IMG/VR virus record: IMGVR_UViG_3300048922_000213
Coordinates: 1-39,894 of that record
Origin: a virus
DNA: 39,894 nucleotides
Strand: one strand, 5' to 3'
The notes below the pieces were generated by a model, which was given only the letters and a program-made list of their open reading frames with translations, searched no databases and was not told where the DNA came from. Made by a program: the position numbers and the translations under genes. Below, piece by piece: positions 3,145 through 10,319 of this stretch (its first letter is position 1; every line of letters starts with the position of its first letter).

Positions 3145-3393
3145 TCACATCCGAAACGATTGATGAATGAACCGCGGCGAGGCCTCTTCCGCTAGTCCTG
3201 CGTCATCTGTCTGGATTTCGCAGATAAACCGGTGCCGCTTCCGGTTGGTCGCTGTCAGTGCTTGGGTGAGGGCGGGGATAGCGTCGAGGCATTGTTCGTA
3301 GGCGGTATCTCCCTTCCAGCGTTGAGCCAGCAACACCTGGCAATCCGTCCGGGTTGCGTCCGTGCACAGATACAGCAGCAGGAAAACAGTCAT
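3145..3393 (-). CDS. Small hypothetical phage protein
   Basis: 82 aa with no recognised domain. The N-terminus (MTVFLLLYLCTD) is hydrophobic but too short for a confident membrane segment; the rest is mixed and polar. The ATG overlaps the stop of the methyltransferase gene as ATGA (3390-3393), indicating translational coupling, and PrtN-like starts 10 bp downstream. Tight packing in the operon is the main evidence that it is real. Confidence 0.6.
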   Translation of the reverse strand: MTVFLLLYLCTDATRTDCQVLLAQRWKGDTAYEQCLDAIPALTQALTATNRKRHRFICEIQTDDAGLAEEASPRFIHQSFRM

Positions 3394-5192
3394 AGCACTG
3401 TCTCCCGTTGCGCCACGCTCAGGCCTACCGCTATCGGGCGAACCCAGATCGGCATGCTATTGAGCATGAAGGTTTCACCGGACGCGGCCAGCAATAGCGT
3501 GGTACCCATCACATCGGCAATTGCTTCGGCCGCGTCAGGTGGTACCGCATTGCCGATCCGCTCACGCCACGCCTGATCACTCAGACCATCCAGCTCGAAC
3601 TGTTCTTCGGGTTCGACCAGGCTTTGCAGCGCGGCCAGCTCCAGCGTGGTGAAAGGGCGGTGCCAAGTGCCGTCGAGACTTTCAATCACGCAGGTCAACC
3701 GGTCGTTCGCTTCCGGCATGCGCGGGTCAGCTACCGACCAGCGTCCGTTGTCCTGCTTTGCACTGGCTGAAACGGCACCGCACTTGTCATTCCAGCCGAC
3801 AACGCCGTAGTGGCCACCAGTCAGATAGGCGTCACCCTTGACGCGCTTCATGCCAGGGCGGGGATCTGCGATCAACAATGCACCACTGGCAACCTGCTGC
3901 GATCCGGTGACAGTCCCAGCCGTTTTATCCCACGGGCAAACGCCCAGCTTCCGGCTACTCGCTGCCGGGTGCCAGTTATGGTATCGGGGATCCTGCACAG
4001 CAAAAGCGCCTTGCCCCGTGGTGCTGCCGGCGATGACTGTTCCGGCGGCCTTGTCGAACTGCGTTACCAAGTACTTTCCGAACCCATCGCCCGGCCTGCG
4101 AGGATCAGCAACGCTAAATGTTCCCTGTCCGGGCGACTTGACGCCGATCACCGCGCCACTGGTCTCTTCCCAGCGACGGACGCCGTACTGCTGATATTGC
4201 AGAGCACCGGCTTTGGCGCGTGGATCAGCAACCGAGAATGCACCGTTTGTTGGGCTGCTGCGCCCCGCGACGGTGCCGGCGGTGCCTTGCCAGTCGTGCA
4301 CGCCAAGGTAGCCGGCGCGATACTCGGGCACGATCACCAGATCACGCAGGTAACCGTCTTCGATCGCCAAGTCATTCAGGCTGCGCCAGTCCTTCCCGGC
4401 GGTGACGAGGGCAAGACGCACCCACGTTTTCCATTGGAGAGCTGGAACCCGGTGCATGGGGCCGGCGGCTTCGATATCGCCGGCGAGCGGCATGCGGCCG
4501 AGGATTGAGCCGACAGACTTGAGGGTTTTCTTTTCTGGCTCATACAGGAAGGGCGGTACCTTCTCGATGTGGCGCGCCACCAGCAAGAACCGTTTGCGAC
4601 TCTGAGCCAGGCCGCCGATTACACCGCAGTCGTGAGTGGTTTCAGCCACGGCATAGCCGAAGTGCGATAGCACCTTGTTGATCTGGTCCAGCAAGTGCCG
4701 GCCACGGGTTGCCAGTCGAGGGACGTTTTCGAAGACCAAAAGCGGAACAGCGTCGTCTTTCCAGGCTTCACCGAAAAGCCAGATGCAGCGTAGCGTGAGT
4801 TCGTTCAGCGCCTGATATTTTGGGGTCAGACTCATCTTTTCGGACAGCAGGCCCGACGCGCCTTTGCACGGACTGGAAATGAACACTGCGTCGGGCCGTT
4901 GGTAGTTGGCTGCACGTCGAACATCTTCGACGGTCGCCTCACGCCAACCAGGTGGCGGCTCTTTCCCGTGGAAGCGGATGTACTGATCACGGGTAAACAG
5001 ATCCAACAGCGTGCCCTTGACGCCGCTCAAACGCTCGAAGTCGGCCAGCCCAGCCGCATCAATGTCGATGCCGCCGATACATTGCCATTGCGCTTGAATG
5101 TTGCCCACGATGGGCTTGGATTTGTTGAAACCTTTGGCGCCGCCACCAAGGCCGCAGCAGAAATGAAAATGTTTGAGTGTTCGCTTGAACAT
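3390..5192 (-). CDS. DNA (cytosine-5) methyltransferase with five internal repeats
   Basis: 600-aa C5-cytosine methyltransferase that moves a methyl group from S-adenosylmethionine to DNA. Motif I (HFCCGLGGGAKGF) is at residues 10-22, motif IV with catalytic Cys109 (SSPCKGASG) at 106-114, motif VI ENV at 155-157, motif VIII QSRKR at 197-201 and motif X GNAVPP at 547-552. The target-recognition region is enlarged: residues about 292-492 hold five imperfect ~40-aa repeats, each with W..xAGTVxG followed by G-A-F-x-VADPR. No endonuclease gene adjoins it, so it looks like an orphan phage methylase protecting phage DNA or tuning expression. Start ATG at 5190-5192 follows AAAGGAAGAAGCACC, a leader shared with two upstream genes and preceded by a hairpin. 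Confidence 0.93.
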   Translation of the reverse strand: MFKRTLKHFHFCCGLGGGAKGFNKSKPIVGNIQAQWQCIGGIDIDAAGLADFERLSGVKGTLLDLFTRDQYIRFHGKEPPPGWREATVEDVRRAANYQRPDAVFISSPCKGASGLLSEKMSLTPKYQALNELTLRCIWLFGEAWKDDAVPLLVFENVPRLATRGRHLLDQINKVLSHFGYAVAETTHDCGVIGGLAQSRKRFLLVARHIEKVPPFLYEPEKKTLKSVGSILGRMPLAGDIEAAGPMHRVPALQWKTWVRLALVTAGKDWRSLNDLAIEDGYLRDLVIVPEYRAGYLGVHDWQGTAGTVAGRSSPTNGAFSVADPRAKAGALQYQQYGVRRWEETSGAVIGVKSPGQGTFSVADPRRPGDGFGKYLVTQFDKAAGTVIAGSTTGQGAFAVQDPRYHNWHPAASSRKLGVCPWDKTAGTVTGSQQVASGALLIADPRPGMKRVKGDAYLTGGHYGVVGWNDKCGAVSASAKQDNGRWSVADPRMPEANDRLTCVIESLDGTWHRPFTTLELAALQSLVEPEEQFELDGLSDQAWRERIGNAVPPDAAEAIADVMGTTLLLAASGETFMLNSMPIWVRPIAVGLSVAQRETVL

Positions 5193-5240
5193 GGTGCTTC
5201 TTCCTTTGCAGGCGATGGGGAGTTGCAGCTACCCATCGCC
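5193..5240 (-). promoter_or_regulatory. Repeated leader element, copy A (CTGCAA-loop hairpin + RBS)
   Basis: Hairpin at 5211-5240: on the transcribed minus strand a 12-bp stem (one T x C mismatch) starts GGCGATGGG, ends CCCATCGCC and closes on the hexaloop CTGCAA. Three nucleotides later comes AAAGGAAGAAGCACC and the methyltransferase ATG. Copies B (5737-5788) and C (6113-6153) have the same loop and leader but different stem sequences. Confidence 0.65.
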
Positions 5241-5251
5241 CGTCATTCAAA

Positions 5252-5473
5252 TCAGCGCGCGTAGCGCCGTGGCTTGTTCTTCTTCGCTTCCGCCCGTGTC
5301 GCCATCAGCTCGGCCCACTCGGCAGACTTGCGCTGCTGTCGGATCCGGCTGCAGGCCTGGTGCTTGCGGGTGGATCGGGCTTTGCCGCAGATGTCGCAGC
5401 AACTGGGGAGGTCAAGCCGATGGCTGGCCATGGGCGGACGTGTGCGTGCCACAGAATTGGCTGAGGGTTGCAT
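5252..5473 (-). CDS. Small basic protein with Cys pairs (possible zinc finger)
   Basis: 73 aa, rich in Arg and Lys, with a CCDICG segment and a further Cys in KHQACSRIRQ, a possible single zinc-binding knuckle; the tail ends KKNKPRRYAR. Its ATG overlaps the stop of the upstream gene as TGATG (5471-5475), so the two are translationally coupled. The function is unknown; a nucleic-acid-binding role is only a guess from composition. Confidence 0.6.
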   Translation of the reverse strand: MQPSANSVARTRPPMASHRLDLPSCCDICGKARSTRKHQACSRIRQQRKSAEWAELMATRAEAKKNKPRRYAR

Positions 5474-5736
5474 CAGGCGTCCCCCAGCAAAGCGCGGGTG
5501 AGGGCGTTGCGCTCGCCCTGGCGAGTCAGCTTGTTCAACGGCTGCACACTGTTGCGACCATTGCGAAGCTTGACGATCGCCGTTGCGCTGTCGATCTCAG
5601 CAATCTTCCCTTCGCGAACGCTGAGACTGACGCTGCGCCCGGTGCTGCGTGCAGCGACGAAAGTCACGTCATCGCCGACCTTGAAGGCGTTCGTGGTAGC
5701 CTCTGTGCCGCTGCCACTTGGGTTTTGTGCTTGCAT
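5473..5736 (-). CDS. Hypothetical 87-aa phage protein, small beta-barrel-like
   Basis: The polar N-terminal tail (about 1-18) is followed by an alternating hydrophobic pattern (VGDDVTFVAARSTGRSVSLSVREGKIAEIDSATAIVKL) that resembles a small SH3/KOW-type barrel, although no family is recognised with confidence. It starts at an ATG preceded by AAAGGAGAAGCACC and the copy-B hairpin, and its stop overlaps the next gene. Position and a strong ribosome-binding site support it as a real early gene. Confidence 0.65.
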   Translation of the reverse strand: MQAQNPSGSGTEATTNAFKVGDDVTFVAARSTGRSVSLSVREGKIAEIDSATAIVKLRNGRNSVQPLNKLTRQGERNALTRALLGDA

Positions 5737-5788
5737 GGTGCTTCTCCTTTGGGGTGGTCGGTGTCGAGGGGTTGCAGCCCCTCGGCAC
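5737..5788 (-). promoter_or_regulatory. Repeated leader element, copy B (CTGCAA-loop hairpin + RBS)
   Basis: Hairpin at 5761-5788: an 11-bp stem with one mismatch, inner part CGAGGGG / CCCCTCG, hexaloop CTGCAA on the transcribed strand. It is followed, after a C-rich spacer, by AAAGGAGAAGCACC and the ATG at 5734-5736. No T-run follows, so it is not an intrinsic terminator. Confidence 0.65.
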
Positions 5789-5815
5789 CAATTCTTTTCG
5801 GCATGAACTCGTTGT

Positions 5816-6112
5816 TCAGCCGGCGCGGCGAACCAGGTGAATCGCTAAACCTTCAAGCTGCTCGTTCCCAGCGGCCTCCTTCTGCCACTGCAAAACCTCA
5901 TCGATCTGTTTGATCGAGCAGTCATCGACAAGCAGCGTCCGCTCACCGCGCTCTAGCCTGACTTCCATGATTCCGAGCAGGCCGTGATGCGAGTACGCAT
6001 CCGCATGAATGATCCCGGCCTGTTTGCCTTCAGCCAGTTGCTGGGCTTCGATCGATCTCAGCTTCGTCGTTTTTCCCGTGCCGGCATCGCCGGTGATCAC
6101 GTGTACTTGCAT
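5816..6112 (-). CDS. Mini P-loop NTPase
   Basis: 98-aa protein with a Walker A motif GDAGTGKTT at residues 8-16 and a Walker-B-like strand TLLVDD at 59-64. It is too short for a full AAA+ or helicase domain; it contains a minimal nucleotide-binding core and little more. It lies directly downstream of the primase-helicase gene in the same operon, so a role in replication or in handling that protein is a reasonable inference. It could also be a relic of a larger ATPase, but the strong ribosome-binding site and the upstream hairpin argue that it is expressed as such. Confidence 0.7.
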   Translation of the reverse strand: MQVHVITGDAGTGKTTKLRSIEAQQLAEGKQAGIIHADAYSHHGLLGIMEVRLERGERTLLVDDCSIKQIDEVLQWQKEAAGNEQLEGLAIHLVRRAG

Positions 6113-6153
6113 GGTGCTTCTCCTTTTGAATATGCCCAGCGTTGCAGCGCCGG
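6113..6153 (-). promoter_or_regulatory. Repeated leader element, copy C (CTGCAA-loop hairpin + RBS)
   Basis: Hairpin at 6136-6153: a 6-bp stem CCGGCG / CGCTGG with one G-U pair in RNA and the hexaloop CTGCAA. It is followed nine nucleotides later by AAAGGAGAAGCACC and the ATG at 6110-6112. It fills most of the 48-bp gap between the primase-helicase stop and the mini-NTPase start. Confidence 0.6.
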
Positions 6154-6160
6154 TTGCGGT

Positions 6161-8875
6161 TTACGCGCTCTGAAAAATCCAGCAGCGCACGGTGGTGGGT
6201 TTGTTGAACATCGCGTTGCCGGCGGCTTGTGAGGCGCGCACCGAGCTGTACACGGCCTTGTTGGATTCCAGCCATTTGTGGCTGCGGCTGTTGACCAGCA
6301 GCCCGCGCAAGGTCTTGAGGTCGGCTAGGTTCTGCCGATGCTCGCTGGCCTTTTCGGCGAATTCGTTGAGGTTGATTGCGATGAGTTTTGGGTCGGTGCT
6401 GTGGTTGACCTGCGGGCCTTCGCCCAGGCTTTCGAGGTATTCGAAGACTTCCCAAAATTCGGCAACCAACGGGTGGTCTGCGCTGATCGCGGCTTGCCGC
6501 TCCAACGCCATGACCATCAGCGCCTGCTGCGTCGTGGCGACGTGGTTGTCATCGAGCGGGCAAACCAGACGCAGACAATCCACCAGAGCCATCAACTGGC
6601 TGTGGTTCTTAATGATCCGTTCCACGCGGATTTCTTTGAGCTTGCGCAAGTGCTGCTCGTGAACAAGTACGCGCTCGGCGAACTTCGCCATCACCTGTGC
6701 TTCAGCACGCACGGCCAGCAACAGGAAGTGGCTCAACTGCTCGACCGGGATCAGGTTCAGGTTGTCGGCGGCCGTGCGACTTTCCGTGGTGACTTCCGGG
6801 CGCGCAAAGTGCGATTTGATAATCCGGGTCAGGATCGCTTCGGACGCGCTGACATCGGCGTTCTGGCTGATCGCAATCGCGCCCCGGAACGGCGGTTCGT
6901 AGGTCTCGTTGCCGCTGGTCTTCATACCTTTGGTGCCGAGCGTGCCGCCGCCGTAGAAGTCCTTCAGCTCGTCCCAGTCGAAGCCCTTGGCGTGCGCCTT
7001 GTCCGGCTCATTGCGGTCGCCCTCGATCAGCACAACCGGCATGTTCGAGACCTGACCCATGGCGCGCTGCCGGCCGGCGCGGGTCGATTTCGACGGGTCA
7101 AAACCCTCATGTTCGCGGCCCAGCAGTTTCCACAGGAAGGTCAGCAGTGTGGTCTTGCCGGCGCCGGCTTCACCGGTCACCTCAAGGAACGGGAAGGATT
7201 TGTACTGCGCGCGGATCTGCTCGGCGAACAGCGATCCGAACCAGAACGCCAGGGCAACAATGCCCTTGGCGCCGAAGCACAGCCACAGCATCGGCAGCCA
7301 GTCAGTGCGGTACTGCTTGCTGTCGCGCTGGATGTGCATGGCGATCGACTTCTGCAGCGTCTTCAGTCGCAGCTTGCCGAACTCGAAAAAGTCCTCCTTG
7401 TTCACCACGCTGACGATACCGCCGCGTACAGCGAGGTCGCCAAACACATAGCAGCCGTGCAGTTTGCTGTAGCCGATGAAATCGATGGTCTCGACAGTCT
7501 TCAGGCCGAACAGCTGATCCTTCATGATCTTGTCGAGCTGCTGCCCGCTGCCGGTGAATACGGCGCCGGCGGCCATGCTGAGCAAACGCTTTTTGAACTC
7601 GCTGGCGGCCGCGACTTGGCCACCGGTGAAGGTGTTCTTCACGCTGCCGCTGTCGTGCGGGAAATCGACGCGGAAGTAGTACCAGGATTCGTCGGTGACT
7701 TCGTTGCGCTGGAAGTACAGCGCCTGTGGGTAGCAATTAGCGATTTCCACCACGCCGCCGCACTGGCGCAGGGCCTTGTCGCGGCGCTGCTTGTCGTTCA
7801 GCAATTGGTCTTCGTGGCGCTCGGAAGACTCCAGCGCCTGCATGGCCTTGTTGAATTTCTCCAGGTCCATCTTGAACCAGTAGAGCCGGCTGTCGAAGCC
7901 GAAGTGAAACTCATGACGCTCGCGCCATTCGTACATCAGCACGCCTTTCTCTGACGCGCTTTCGGCGATCAGCAATGCACCGTGGTAGCGAGCGGTGGCC
8001 AGATCCTTCTCGATCTGCTCGGCACGTTCGCTCTCGCCGTCGATGAACGCCCAGCGCTGATGCAGATCGTTCCAATCGATCTTGCGGCTGTCCGATTGGG
8101 GGATCTGCGCTGCTTCGCACTCGTAGCCCAGGGCGCGAGCCTGACGCACCCAGCGCTTGGTGTATTTGTGCGCGCCGGGTTCGTTGTCCAGTGCCCAAAT
8201 GAGCTTGGGCAATTTTCCGCCGCGCTGCCGGGCCAGCTCCTTCAGAGACTCTTCAGGGAAGAAGGCCGACGACATTGCCGACACCGCTGCAATGCCGTTA
8301 TGCACCAGAGCGATGGCGTCAAAGATGCCCTCGACAATCCACAGCTCTTTGACGTGCAGCAGCTCTACACATGGCGGGCACCACCAGTACCCACGCGGGC
8401 TATCGCCAGGCTTAAACCGCGCCTTCATCTTGCCGAACCGGTGCGGTCGGTCGATCAGGCGCTCCCAGTAGCCACCTTTCTCCAGTGCAAAGCGCACCGT
8501 CGCACTGCCGGCATTCAGCTCGCCGGAGAAATAAGTTTCCTGCGTAAACCAGCCTTGAATCAGATCAAGCCGAAAGCCACGGGCAAATTCCAGATACGCA
8601 CGGGCGGTGGCGCTGGGGTGTTGCTCGCTCGCTGGGGCGCGCTTGCTCCAATCTTCGAACAGGTCCTCATAGATTTCTTTTACGTGCCAGGTCTGGCCAC
8701 ACTTGCCCCGTCCGCAGCGGATCATCCACGGGTCATCGTGGAAGGCGTACAGCTCCTTTTTCTTGCACGCCGGGCATTCGCCCTGGCGCATGTATTTACC
8801 GGCTTTGTGTTTGAGTCCGTAGTCGGATTCAAGGCGTTGCAGAATGTCGGCGCGCAGATCGTGCTTCATGTTCAT
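6161..8875 (-). CDS. Primase-helicase (zinc finger, TOPRIM, P-loop ATPase)
   Basis: 904-aa replication protein. The N-terminus has a Cys4 zinc ribbon (C34, C37, C54, C59) of the primase type; a TOPRIM region follows with VEGIFDA (181-187) and ALDNEPG (228-234); a helicase-type P-loop GEAGAGKTT is at 568-576 with a Walker-B-like PVVLIEGD at 613-620. This matches phage proteins that prime and unwind DNA at an origin, in the manner of the P4 alpha protein or DUF927-type helicases. P2 itself uses the rolling-circle initiator gpA; none is seen here, so replication is probably theta-type from a separate origin. The start is one of two nearby ATGs (8875 or 8869). Confidence 0.88.
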   Translation of the reverse strand: MNMKHDLRADILQRLESDYGLKHKAGKYMRQGECPACKKKELYAFHDDPWMIRCGRGKCGQTWHVKEIYEDLFEDWSKRAPASEQHPSATARAYLEFARGFRLDLIQGWFTQETYFSGELNAGSATVRFALEKGGYWERLIDRPHRFGKMKARFKPGDSPRGYWWCPPCVELLHVKELWIVEGIFDAIALVHNGIAAVSAMSSAFFPEESLKELARQRGGKLPKLIWALDNEPGAHKYTKRWVRQARALGYECEAAQIPQSDSRKIDWNDLHQRWAFIDGESERAEQIEKDLATARYHGALLIAESASEKGVLMYEWRERHEFHFGFDSRLYWFKMDLEKFNKAMQALESSERHEDQLLNDKQRRDKALRQCGGVVEIANCYPQALYFQRNEVTDESWYYFRVDFPHDSGSVKNTFTGGQVAAASEFKKRLLSMAAGAVFTGSGQQLDKIMKDQLFGLKTVETIDFIGYSKLHGCYVFGDLAVRGGIVSVVNKEDFFEFGKLRLKTLQKSIAMHIQRDSKQYRTDWLPMLWLCFGAKGIVALAFWFGSLFAEQIRAQYKSFPFLEVTGEAGAGKTTLLTFLWKLLGREHEGFDPSKSTRAGRQRAMGQVSNMPVVLIEGDRNEPDKAHAKGFDWDELKDFYGGGTLGTKGMKTSGNETYEPPFRGAIAISQNADVSASEAILTRIIKSHFARPEVTTESRTAADNLNLIPVEQLSHFLLLAVRAEAQVMAKFAERVLVHEQHLRKLKEIRVERIIKNHSQLMALVDCLRLVCPLDDNHVATTQQALMVMALERQAAISADHPLVAEFWEVFEYLESLGEGPQVNHSTDPKLIAINLNEFAEKASEHRQNLADLKTLRGLLVNSRSHKWLESNKAVYSSVRASQAAGNAMFNKPTTVRCWIFQSA

Positions 8876-9562: not shown

Positions 9563-9849
9563 TGCGCACACTCCATTTCCATTTGGTCGAGCAGGTCGGG
9601 TTGATCGTTGGCGGTTTTCATCGCGGCGCGGCGCAGGGCGATATCGGCAATGGGTAAGCGCACCGATGGGTTGGCCATGCCGCTGGGACTCATTTCGTGA
9701 GTCATCTCGAACTCGGCACGCACTGACCATCCGCAGGCCTCGTTGGTGCATTGCAGATAGGCCACCCGCAGGAAAATGTGTGTGCCTTCGCTGGTGCGGA
9801 TGCGCATGCGACCGAGGCAGTGCGGGCAAACCAGTTTGTATGTACTCAC
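9559..9849 (-). CDS. ogr: Ogr/Delta-type zinc-finger activator of late genes
   Basis: 96-aa protein with the P2 Ogr / P4 Delta zinc-finger arrangement: C8-P-H-C11, then C34 and C39 (CTNEAC), followed by GWSVRAEFEMTHEMSPSGMANP. Ogr proteins bind upstream of the four P2-type late operons and recruit RNA polymerase. It is somewhat longer than the ~72-aa P2 protein because of a C-terminal tail. The start is a GTG whose bases overlap the preceding stop (GTGA). Candidate target dyads occur before P/O, V and FI. Confidence 0.85.
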   Translation of the reverse strand: MSTYKLVCPHCLGRMRIRTSEGTHIFLRVAYLQCTNEACGWSVRAEFEMTHEMSPSGMANPSVRLPIADIALRRAAMKTANDQPDLLDQMEMECAQ

Positions 9850-10319
9850 CCAGCGATCCCCCGACCGTGCAGTTGAATGGTGGCCAGCACTTCGGCGTAG
9901 CGGGCGGACATGTAGTGCACCAGAGCGTTGATGATTGCTTGGGCTTCGCAGGACTCTATGACACCGTCGTCGAGTGCTTTGGCAATGATCTGATCAACCA
10001 TCCCGCGCTTGGCGGCGGCTTTGACTGACCGGTTGTACAACTCGACGTTGTCCAGGTCCGCCGACGCGGTCAGCGGTACAAACATGCCGCCGTATTTGGC
10101 TGCGATGTAGTCCGGCAGGAAGGTTGTTCCTGCTACCTGTTCGAGGCGATGAATGTGGTCGTCGCTCAGCGGACGGCTACCGGCGTTTTCGTAGGCTTGG
10201 TTATCGAACTTTTTGAGGGGCATCCCGAGATCAGCAGCTGCGTAAATCCGGCCTCCCTGGTAGGCGCCGATTACTGCACTGACCACATCTTTCCTGTTGG
10301 CTAGAACTGGGCGTTTCAT
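9846..10319 (-). CDS. CII-like phage regulatory protein
   Basis: 157-aa protein starting MKRPVLANRKDVVSAVIGAY with AADLGMPLKKFDNQAYENAG, a pattern shared with the CII/CP76-like regulators of phages and the YmfL group. The frame extends to a TTG at 10341, but the ATG at 10317-10319 lies downstream of GGGAGGAAACC and is preferred. It probably helps decide lysis or lysogeny, or early transcription. It is the second gene after the early promoter, and its stop overlaps the ogr-like start. Confidence 0.75.
   Translation of the reverse strand: MKRPVLANRKDVVSAVIGAYQGGRIYAAADLGMPLKKFDNQAYENAGSRPLSDDHIHRLEQVAGTTFLPDYIAAKYGGMFVPLTASADLDNVELYNRSVKAAAKRGMVDQIIAKALDDGVIESCEAQAIINALVHYMSARYAEVLATIQLHGRGIAG

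What the first reader, a model, noticed from the sequence alone, without database searches (positions are those of the whole stretch)
5193..6153. Three hairpins with the same CTGCAA loop and different stems, each before the same RBS leader
Seen directly: the only three non-overlapping gaps in the 6161-5192 part of the early operon (before the mini-NTPase, the 87-aa protein and the methyltransferase) each hold a hairpin closing on the hexaloop CTGCAA (loops at 6142-6147, 5772-5777 and 5223-5228), followed by AAAGGA(A)GAAGCACC-ATG. The stems differ in sequence (GGCGATGGG.., CGAGGGG.., CCGGCG..) yet remain paired, which is covariation and points to a structured RNA rather than a recent DNA duplication. 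No T-run follows, so they are not simple terminators. A binding site for a phage or host RNA-binding protein, or an RNase processing signal that sets expression of each gene, is inferred.
Basis: partly seen in the sequence, partly recalled or inferred. Interest (0 to 1): 0.72.

Follow-up and report, generated by a model that had tools for sequence, protein, structure and literature searches.

The report
Repeated RNA hairpins at gene starts
A group of Pseudomonas phages puts the same kind of small RNA hairpin, with an identical six-letter loop but different stems, just before the start of many unrelated accessory genes, which looks like a shared translation-control tag that I could not find described and whose reader is still unknown.

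Summary
The window is a P2-like (Peduoviridae) Pseudomonas phage. All three gaps after the primase hold a hairpin with loop CTGCAA followed by AAAGGA(A)GAAGCACC-ATG. The same element occurs 1-4 times per phage, always in the accessory block behind the same primase. It precedes more than 20 unrelated gene families and matches no Rfam family. Stems covary: in 69 sequences all 12 pairs show two-sided changes, and 41 orthologous hairpins show compensatory swaps. Among loops found without assuming their sequence, CTGCAA (254) and CGGCAA (86) dominate. 127 of 128 loci with several copies use one loop type throughout; random mixing predicts 66. The element extends into codon 2 (ATGCA).

Best reading: a cis-acting RNA tag read through its loop by a trans-acting factor, most likely phage-specified, that sets translation of accessory early genes. 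It works like Mu Com/mom but is not a member of that family. A small basic zinc-finger-like protein behind the most conserved hairpin is the leading, unproven candidate. The hairpin lies upstream of the ribosome footprint and by prediction neither hides nor frees the Shine-Dalgarno sequence. Processing signals, terminators, DNA operators and pure recombination linkers fit less well.

The parts
6136..6153 (-). Hairpin 1: arms 6148-6153 / 6136-6141, loop CTGCAA 6142-6147, before the 98-aa NTPase-like gene
   Evidence: covariance model hit 53.5 bits, E 1e-14 (the window copies are in the model's alignment)
6113..6126 (-). Start leader AAAGGAGAAGCACC, followed by ATGCA (6108-6112)
   Evidence: shared by hundreds of sites in related phages
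5760..5789 (-). Hairpin 2: GGTGC CGAGGGG [CTGCAA 5772-5777] CCCCTCG A CACC, before the 87-aa gene; the most conserved hairpin position
   Evidence: model hit 72.1 bits, E 4e-20; 41 distinct orthologues with compensatory changes
5737..5750 (-). Start leader AAAGGAGAAGCACC, followed by ATGCA
5693..5702 (-). Second nucleotide motif AGGCTANCAC inside the 87-aa gene at +35 to +44 from ATG
   Evidence: 136 of 147 occurrences in 2.9 Mb of loci lie in hairpin-led genes; codon 13 GCT in 97 of 98 distinct 5' ends while codon 14 middle base varies
5211..5240 (-). Hairpin 3: GGCGATGGG T AG [CTGCAA 5223-5228] CT C CCCATCGCC, before the DNA methyltransferase gene
   Evidence: model hit 45.8 bits, E 3e-12
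5193..5206 (-). Start leader AAGGAAGAAGCACC before ATG of the methyltransferase (here ATGTTC, not ATGCA)
5816..6112 (-). Hairpin-led gene: 98-aa P-loop NTPase-like protein
   Evidence: weak Pfam AAA-type hits, PHROG 7795
5473..5736 (-). Hairpin-led gene: 87-aa protein with the exchangeable N-terminal leader MQ..EATT
5252..5473 (-). 73-aa basic protein with C-X2-C-X8-H-X2-C motif (PHROG 10699); in many relatives itself directly hairpin-led; candidate loop reader
   Evidence: all zinc-protein loci tested carry hairpins
3390..5192 (-). Hairpin-led gene: 600-aa DNA cytosine methyltransferase
   Evidence: Pfam DNA_methylase E 7e-13
6161..8875 (-). Primase/helicase gene that always precedes the hairpin block in relatives (not hairpin-led)
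   Evidence: PHROG 1139; present in all 41 hairpin loci with enough upstream sequence

Best explanation
Each hairpin is part of a movable 5' control module: hairpin, then 14-nt Shine-Dalgarno leader, then ATGCA. The module is placed in front of accessory early genes of one clade of P2-like phages. The mRNA forms the hairpin just upstream of the 30S footprint. A trans-acting factor reads the hexaloop (CUGCAA or CGGCAA, one type per phage) on a stem whose sequence hardly matters, and so sets translation (or stability) of all tagged genes together. Shown: hairpin, covariation, leader, position, one loop type per phage, extension into codon 2. Inferred: that a trans factor exists, that it is phage-specified rather than host, and that it acts on translation. 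Speculative: that the factor is the small C2HC zinc-finger-like protein encoded behind the most conserved hairpin, and that it activates, as Mu Com does on mom.
For: RNA pairing: 12/12 pairs with changes on both sides, covariation score 0.433 against 0.135 shuffled and 0.06-0.11 with partners slid. Orthologous hairpins swap pairs A-U/G-C, G-C/C-G and U-A/C-G. Loop selection: best hexaloop upstream of leaders, loop sequence not assumed, is CTGCAA 254 and CGGCAA 86 of 371. One loop per genome: 127 of 128 loci with two or more copies, random mean 66, maximum 79. Prophages with both loop types come from overlapping host groups, so host species alone does not set the loop. Geometry: stem end to ATG 19-23 nt in most of 133 distinct hairpins with stems of 5-15 bp. 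Optional tag: families found with and without the hairpin start ATGCA only, or far more often, when led (82-aa family 8/8 versus 1/58; zinc protein 15/15 versus 9/59). Phage-specific: 16 host chromosomes show strong hits only at the prophage locus, bar one second locus in one genome. Candidate reader: 41 of 41 zinc-protein loci scanned carry hairpins; the protein is small, C2HC and +7 to +14 charged.
Against: No reader was identified. Prophages L133, L136, L140 and L143 have hairpins but no zinc-protein hit. On gene trees the loop type changes 4-8 times and no early protein stands out; no residue column predicts it cleanly. Phages with a single hairpin carry other or inverted loops (TTGCAG, TTACAG, TTGGCC, TTGCCC, CTGCTA), so the loop is not essential there. 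Predicted SD accessibility is the same with native and shuffled hairpins (0.55 both), so there is no thermodynamic switch. Structure searches with the zinc protein (pLDDT 76) and the 77-aa protein gave nothing useful.
Confidence: 0.5

Rival explanations
1. Modular linker: the hairpin, leader and ATGCA are kept mainly as a conserved junction through which accessory genes are swapped by homologous recombination, as proposed for boundary sequences of other temperate phages (own knowledge); any regulatory role is secondary.
For: More than 20 unrelated ORF families follow the module. Behind the most conserved hairpin the block hairpin to AGGCTANCAC is followed by unrelated ORFs. Some first-gene hairpins look copied from the other position.
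Against: Recombination linkers need sequence identity, but stems differ almost completely between sites while pairing and loop are kept. Conversion of only a 6-8-nt loop between otherwise different hairpins is implausible.
Confidence: 0.2
2. Cis-only element: the hairpin acts without a specific partner, by stabilising the 3' mRNA after cleavage or by uncoupling translation from the upstream stop codon.
For: Hairpins sit between an upstream stop codon and the next SD. Stem and distance to the start are kept. Single-hairpin phages tolerate varied loops.
Against: Without a partner the loop should drift faster than the stem. Instead it is nearly fixed and matched across all sites of a genome. SD accessibility is unchanged by the hairpin in prediction.
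Confidence: 0.15
3. A host RNA-binding protein (not a phage one) reads the loop, and loop types reflect tolerated variants.
For: Hairpin-type elements also occur in phages of Stenotrophomonas, Azotobacter and possibly Acinetobacter.
Against: Host chromosomes contain no other strong copies, and both loop types occur in phages from overlapping Pseudomonas groups. The A-rich or GGA motifs of Hfq/Crc and RsmA (own knowledge) are not in the loop.
Confidence: 0.1
4. Base-pairing with a phage small RNA or antisense hairpin carrying the complementary loop.
For: Inverted loops TTGCAG and TTGGCG exist in single-hairpin phages and would pair with CTGCAA and CGCCAA.
Against: A scan of 76 early regions found no conserved complementary hairpin that follows the loop type.
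Confidence: 0.05

Closest known systems
[quoted passage not shown]
   Same: Multi-copy, one orientation, SD-bearing conserved sequence at start codons of non-structural genes, partly with an inverted repeat just upstream; differs by phage subgroup; linked to unrelated genes.
   Different: SAS is another sequence (GGGATAGGAGCCC) in unrelated phages. ESAS repeats share a consensus and do not keep RNA pairing, so its authors favour a DNA-binding protein. Here stem sequence is free, pairing covaries and the loop is fixed.
Com/mom of phage Mu (PMC6483171)
   Same: Small zinc-finger protein gene close to a DNA-modification gene; protein binds a hairpin upstream of a phage gene start and activates translation; the native Mu target GAAUGCCUGCGAGCAUCCC can be drawn with hexaloop CUGCGA, close to CUGCAA (loop drawn by me).
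   Different: Com recognises CC(N)2-3GAG, absent here; Com is a CCCC finger and the 73-aa protein is C2HC with no Pfam hit; Com has one known target gene, here many genes are tagged.
Coat-protein operator hairpins of RNA phages (MS2, PP7; own knowledge)
   Same: Short hairpin with conserved loop and tolerant stem, read by a phage protein to control translation.
   Different: Those hairpins contain the SD or start codon of one gene; here the hairpin ends about 20 nt before ATG and is repeated.
T4 intercistronic UUCG hairpins (own knowledge)
   Same: Repeated stable hairpins between phage genes.
   Different: Those are stability or terminator-type tetraloops; here the hexaloop is of no known extra-stable class and varies by phage lineage.

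Membership tests
SAS/ESAS (cluster K mycobacteriophages) | 13-bp GGGATAGGAGCCC within 3-7 bp of the start | tested here: not met
   Leader is AAAGGAGAAGCACC
SAS/ESAS (cluster K mycobacteriophages) | Multi-copy, at starts of non-structural genes only | tested here: met
   1-4 copies, only in the block behind the primase
SAS/ESAS (cluster K mycobacteriophages) | Inverted repeats with a shared consensus that do not keep RNA pairing | tested here: not met
   Arms have no common sequence and pairing covaries
Mu Com/mom | Trans protein belongs to the Com zinc-ribbon family | tested here: not met
   73-aa protein has no Pfam or NCBIfam hit and is C2HC, not CCCC
Mu Com/mom | Hairpin with CC(N)2-3GAG in the loop upstream of the target start | tested here: not met
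   Loop is CUGCAA or CGGCAA; motif from PMC6483171
Mu Com/mom | Loop-dependent translational activation | not testable with these tools
   needs reporter assays
Rfam families (release 15) | Match at or near a family's gathering score | tested here: not met
   Best match 26 bits against cut-off 45 on the wrong strand, E 0.05
Intrinsic terminator | GC stem followed by a T-run on the transcribed strand | tested here: not met
   None on the minus strand in 5000-6400
MS2/PP7-type operator | Hairpin overlaps SD or start codon | tested here: not met
   Stem ends mostly 19-23 nt before ATG

The most novel reading that the evidence does not exclude
A phage-encoded RNA address system: each phage lineage tags all of its accessory genes with one loop type, and a matching reader controls them as one regulon, so captured genes join the regulon by acquiring the hairpin-leader-ATGCA module. 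The inner motif AGGCTANCAC would be a second recognition or joining site of the same system.
Probability: 0.4. Interest if true: 0.85.

Novelty: new variant of a known kind. Interest (0 to 1): 0.72.

Why it matters
If true, unrelated accessory genes of a widespread phage group, including DNA methyltransferases and many unknown small proteins, are held under one post-transcriptional switch. It would give a ready marker (hairpin plus ATGCA) for genes newly captured by these phages, and a loop-reader pair that could be used like MS2 or Com tethering. It also offers a clear case, unlike SAS/ESAS, in which start-associated repeats work as RNA.

Tried and rejected
Rfam: nothing. Simple duplication of DNA: rejected, stems differ while pairing is kept. 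SD occlusion or release by the hairpin: no effect in prediction. Promoters or terminators: none on the sense strand. Antisense RNA with the complementary loop: not found. AlphaFold2 models of the zinc and 77-aa proteins had no informative PDB match. RsmA and Hfq/Crc were considered and rejected because their motifs are not in the loop. A search of open-access papers found no description of the element; subscription literature was not searchable.

Full report
WHAT WAS CHECKED. Loop CTGCAA alone is only mildly unusual in this window, and hairpin 1 folds no better than shuffles, so the case could not rest on the window alone. The window is a P2-like Pseudomonas phage; close annotated relatives (Dobby, D14A, Sirocco) are Peduoviridae, genus Citexvirus.

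FAMILY OF ELEMENTS. A scan of viral contigs for the leader alone (no hairpin in the pattern) returned 120 stretches. Most of the copies in this type of phage have the hairpin directly upstream, and chance matches of the leader elsewhere do not. All 41 such hairpin loci with more than 5 kb of upstream sequence carry the same primase. An independent scan anchored on the primase (55 loci, not selected for hairpins) showed 2-4 copies in about 20 Pseudomonas prophages. It showed single or variant copies in some relatives from Azotobacter, Lysobacteraceae and possibly Acinetobacter, two CGCCAA-loop copies in Stenotrophomonas phages, and none in most Comamonadaceae relatives. A third scan anchored on the 73-aa protein gave hairpins in 41 of 41 loci searched. 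In 16 host genomes of 4-7 Mb the strong model hits lie at the prophage locus, with one second locus in one genome. In the window the model finds the three sites at 46-72 bits and nothing comparable elsewhere; these three are in its training alignment.

STRUCTURE. On 69 diverse elements all 12 pairs show two-sided changes. The covariation score is 0.433 against 0.135 in shuffles and 0.06-0.11 when partners are slid. Because that set mixes positions, I repeated the test on 41 distinct orthologous hairpins. Pair 2 is A-U in 21 and G-C in 19, pair 9 is G-C in 31 and C-G in 9, pair 10 is U-A in 22 and C-G in 17, all with at most one break. Taking the best hexaloop hairpin at each leader whatever its loop, 254 are CTGCAA, 86 CGGCAA, and no other exceeds 3. 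Some loci there overlap or are near-duplicates, so the counts are not independent events. Of 128 loci with two or more copies of the main loops, 127 use one loop throughout, against a random mean of 66. P. aeruginosa phages use CGGCAA with leader AAAGGAGAGACACC (or a one-base variant) at all their sites. The stem ends mostly 19-23 nt before ATG.

THE ELEMENT REACHES INTO THE GENE. After ATG the next base is C almost without exception and usually CA. Gene families that occur with and without the hairpin show that this belongs to the element. The 82-aa family starts ATGCA in 8 of 8 hairpin-led copies and 1 of 58 others, the zinc protein in 15 of 15 and 9 of 59. The window methyltransferase (ATGTTC) is an exception. 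More than 20 unrelated families are led. The gene behind the most conserved hairpin also shares about 15 codons ending in AGGCTANCAC at +35. Third positions there are fixed (GCT in 97 of 98) while an amino-acid-changing middle base varies, which is selection on nucleotides. The selection of 5' ends partly used GCT itself, so that number is somewhat inflated; the positional result is not affected by that choice. Unrelated ORFs begin right after it.

MECHANISM. What is shown: a covarying RNA hairpin with a lineage-wide loop, at a fixed place before a conserved SD, as an optional tag on accessory genes. What follows by inference: a reader of the loop. The hairpin lies outside the usual 30S footprint and does not change predicted SD accessibility, so I favour an activating or stabilising role over occlusion. 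The 73-aa C2HC protein (charge +7 to +14) is the leading candidate by gene neighbourhood and by analogy with Com. Four hairpin-bearing prophages (L133, L136, L140, L143) lack it, and gene-tree and residue tests do not single it out. Loop type is not set simply by host species: both types occur in prophages of overlapping Pseudomonas groups.

COMPARISON. Not in Rfam. SAS/ESAS is closest in layout but differs in sequence and, by its authors' own analysis, does not keep RNA pairing. Com/mom is closest in how it may work, but sequence motif and protein family differ. I therefore call it a new variant of a known kind: start-associated phage RNA control elements.

LIMITS. No expression data, no partner, and inverted or variant loops in single-hairpin phages show that loop identity is not universal.

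Noticed in passing
window 5693-5702 (minus strand) and +35 of homologous genes in many loci: Nucleotide-level motif AGGCTANCAC inside the coding region, also further downstream in Xanthomonad phages L151, L153, L128; unrelated ORFs begin right after it. Function unknown; in L161 it could act as an internal SD before ATGCGTTATGAC.
   Followed up: partly
L178, L140, L135, L138, L161, L144, L137 (genes behind the conserved hairpin): The same roughly 15-residue N-terminal leader (MQ..P....EKATTP) is fused to unrelated proteins: 87-aa domain, zinc protein, Arc-like protein and others.
   Followed up: partly
L161, L185 (TTGCAG), L129 (TTACAG), L152 (TTGGCC), L220 (TTGCCC), L153 (TTGGCG): Single-hairpin phages carry loops that look like the reverse complement of the common loops, as if the loop segment had been inverted between the stem arms.
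   Followed up: partly
L075 minus strand, about 6514 and 7299: In another contig a terminator-like hairpin with T-run stands directly before TCAGGAGAG(A)ACCATGCAA, twice; a possibly related start module without the conserved loop.
   Followed up: no
window 5760-5789 plus strand: Hairpin 2 read on the opposite strand is followed by AATTCTTTTC and scores as terminator-like (no more than chance in number), so it could stop antisense transcription; not so for the other two hairpins.
   Followed up: no
window 9849-10319 (minus strand): CII-like protein matches NCBIfam YmfL-family regulator (E 4e-51) and is present in all 25 Pseudomonas phage loci with CTGCAA or CGGCAA hairpins examined but in 1 of 20 hairpin-less relatives.
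   Followed up: partly
G004 contig C113, 20774-20831 (genome of L140): A second strong hairpin hit (69 bits) outside the primase locus found here, probably another prophage; not examined.
   Followed up: no
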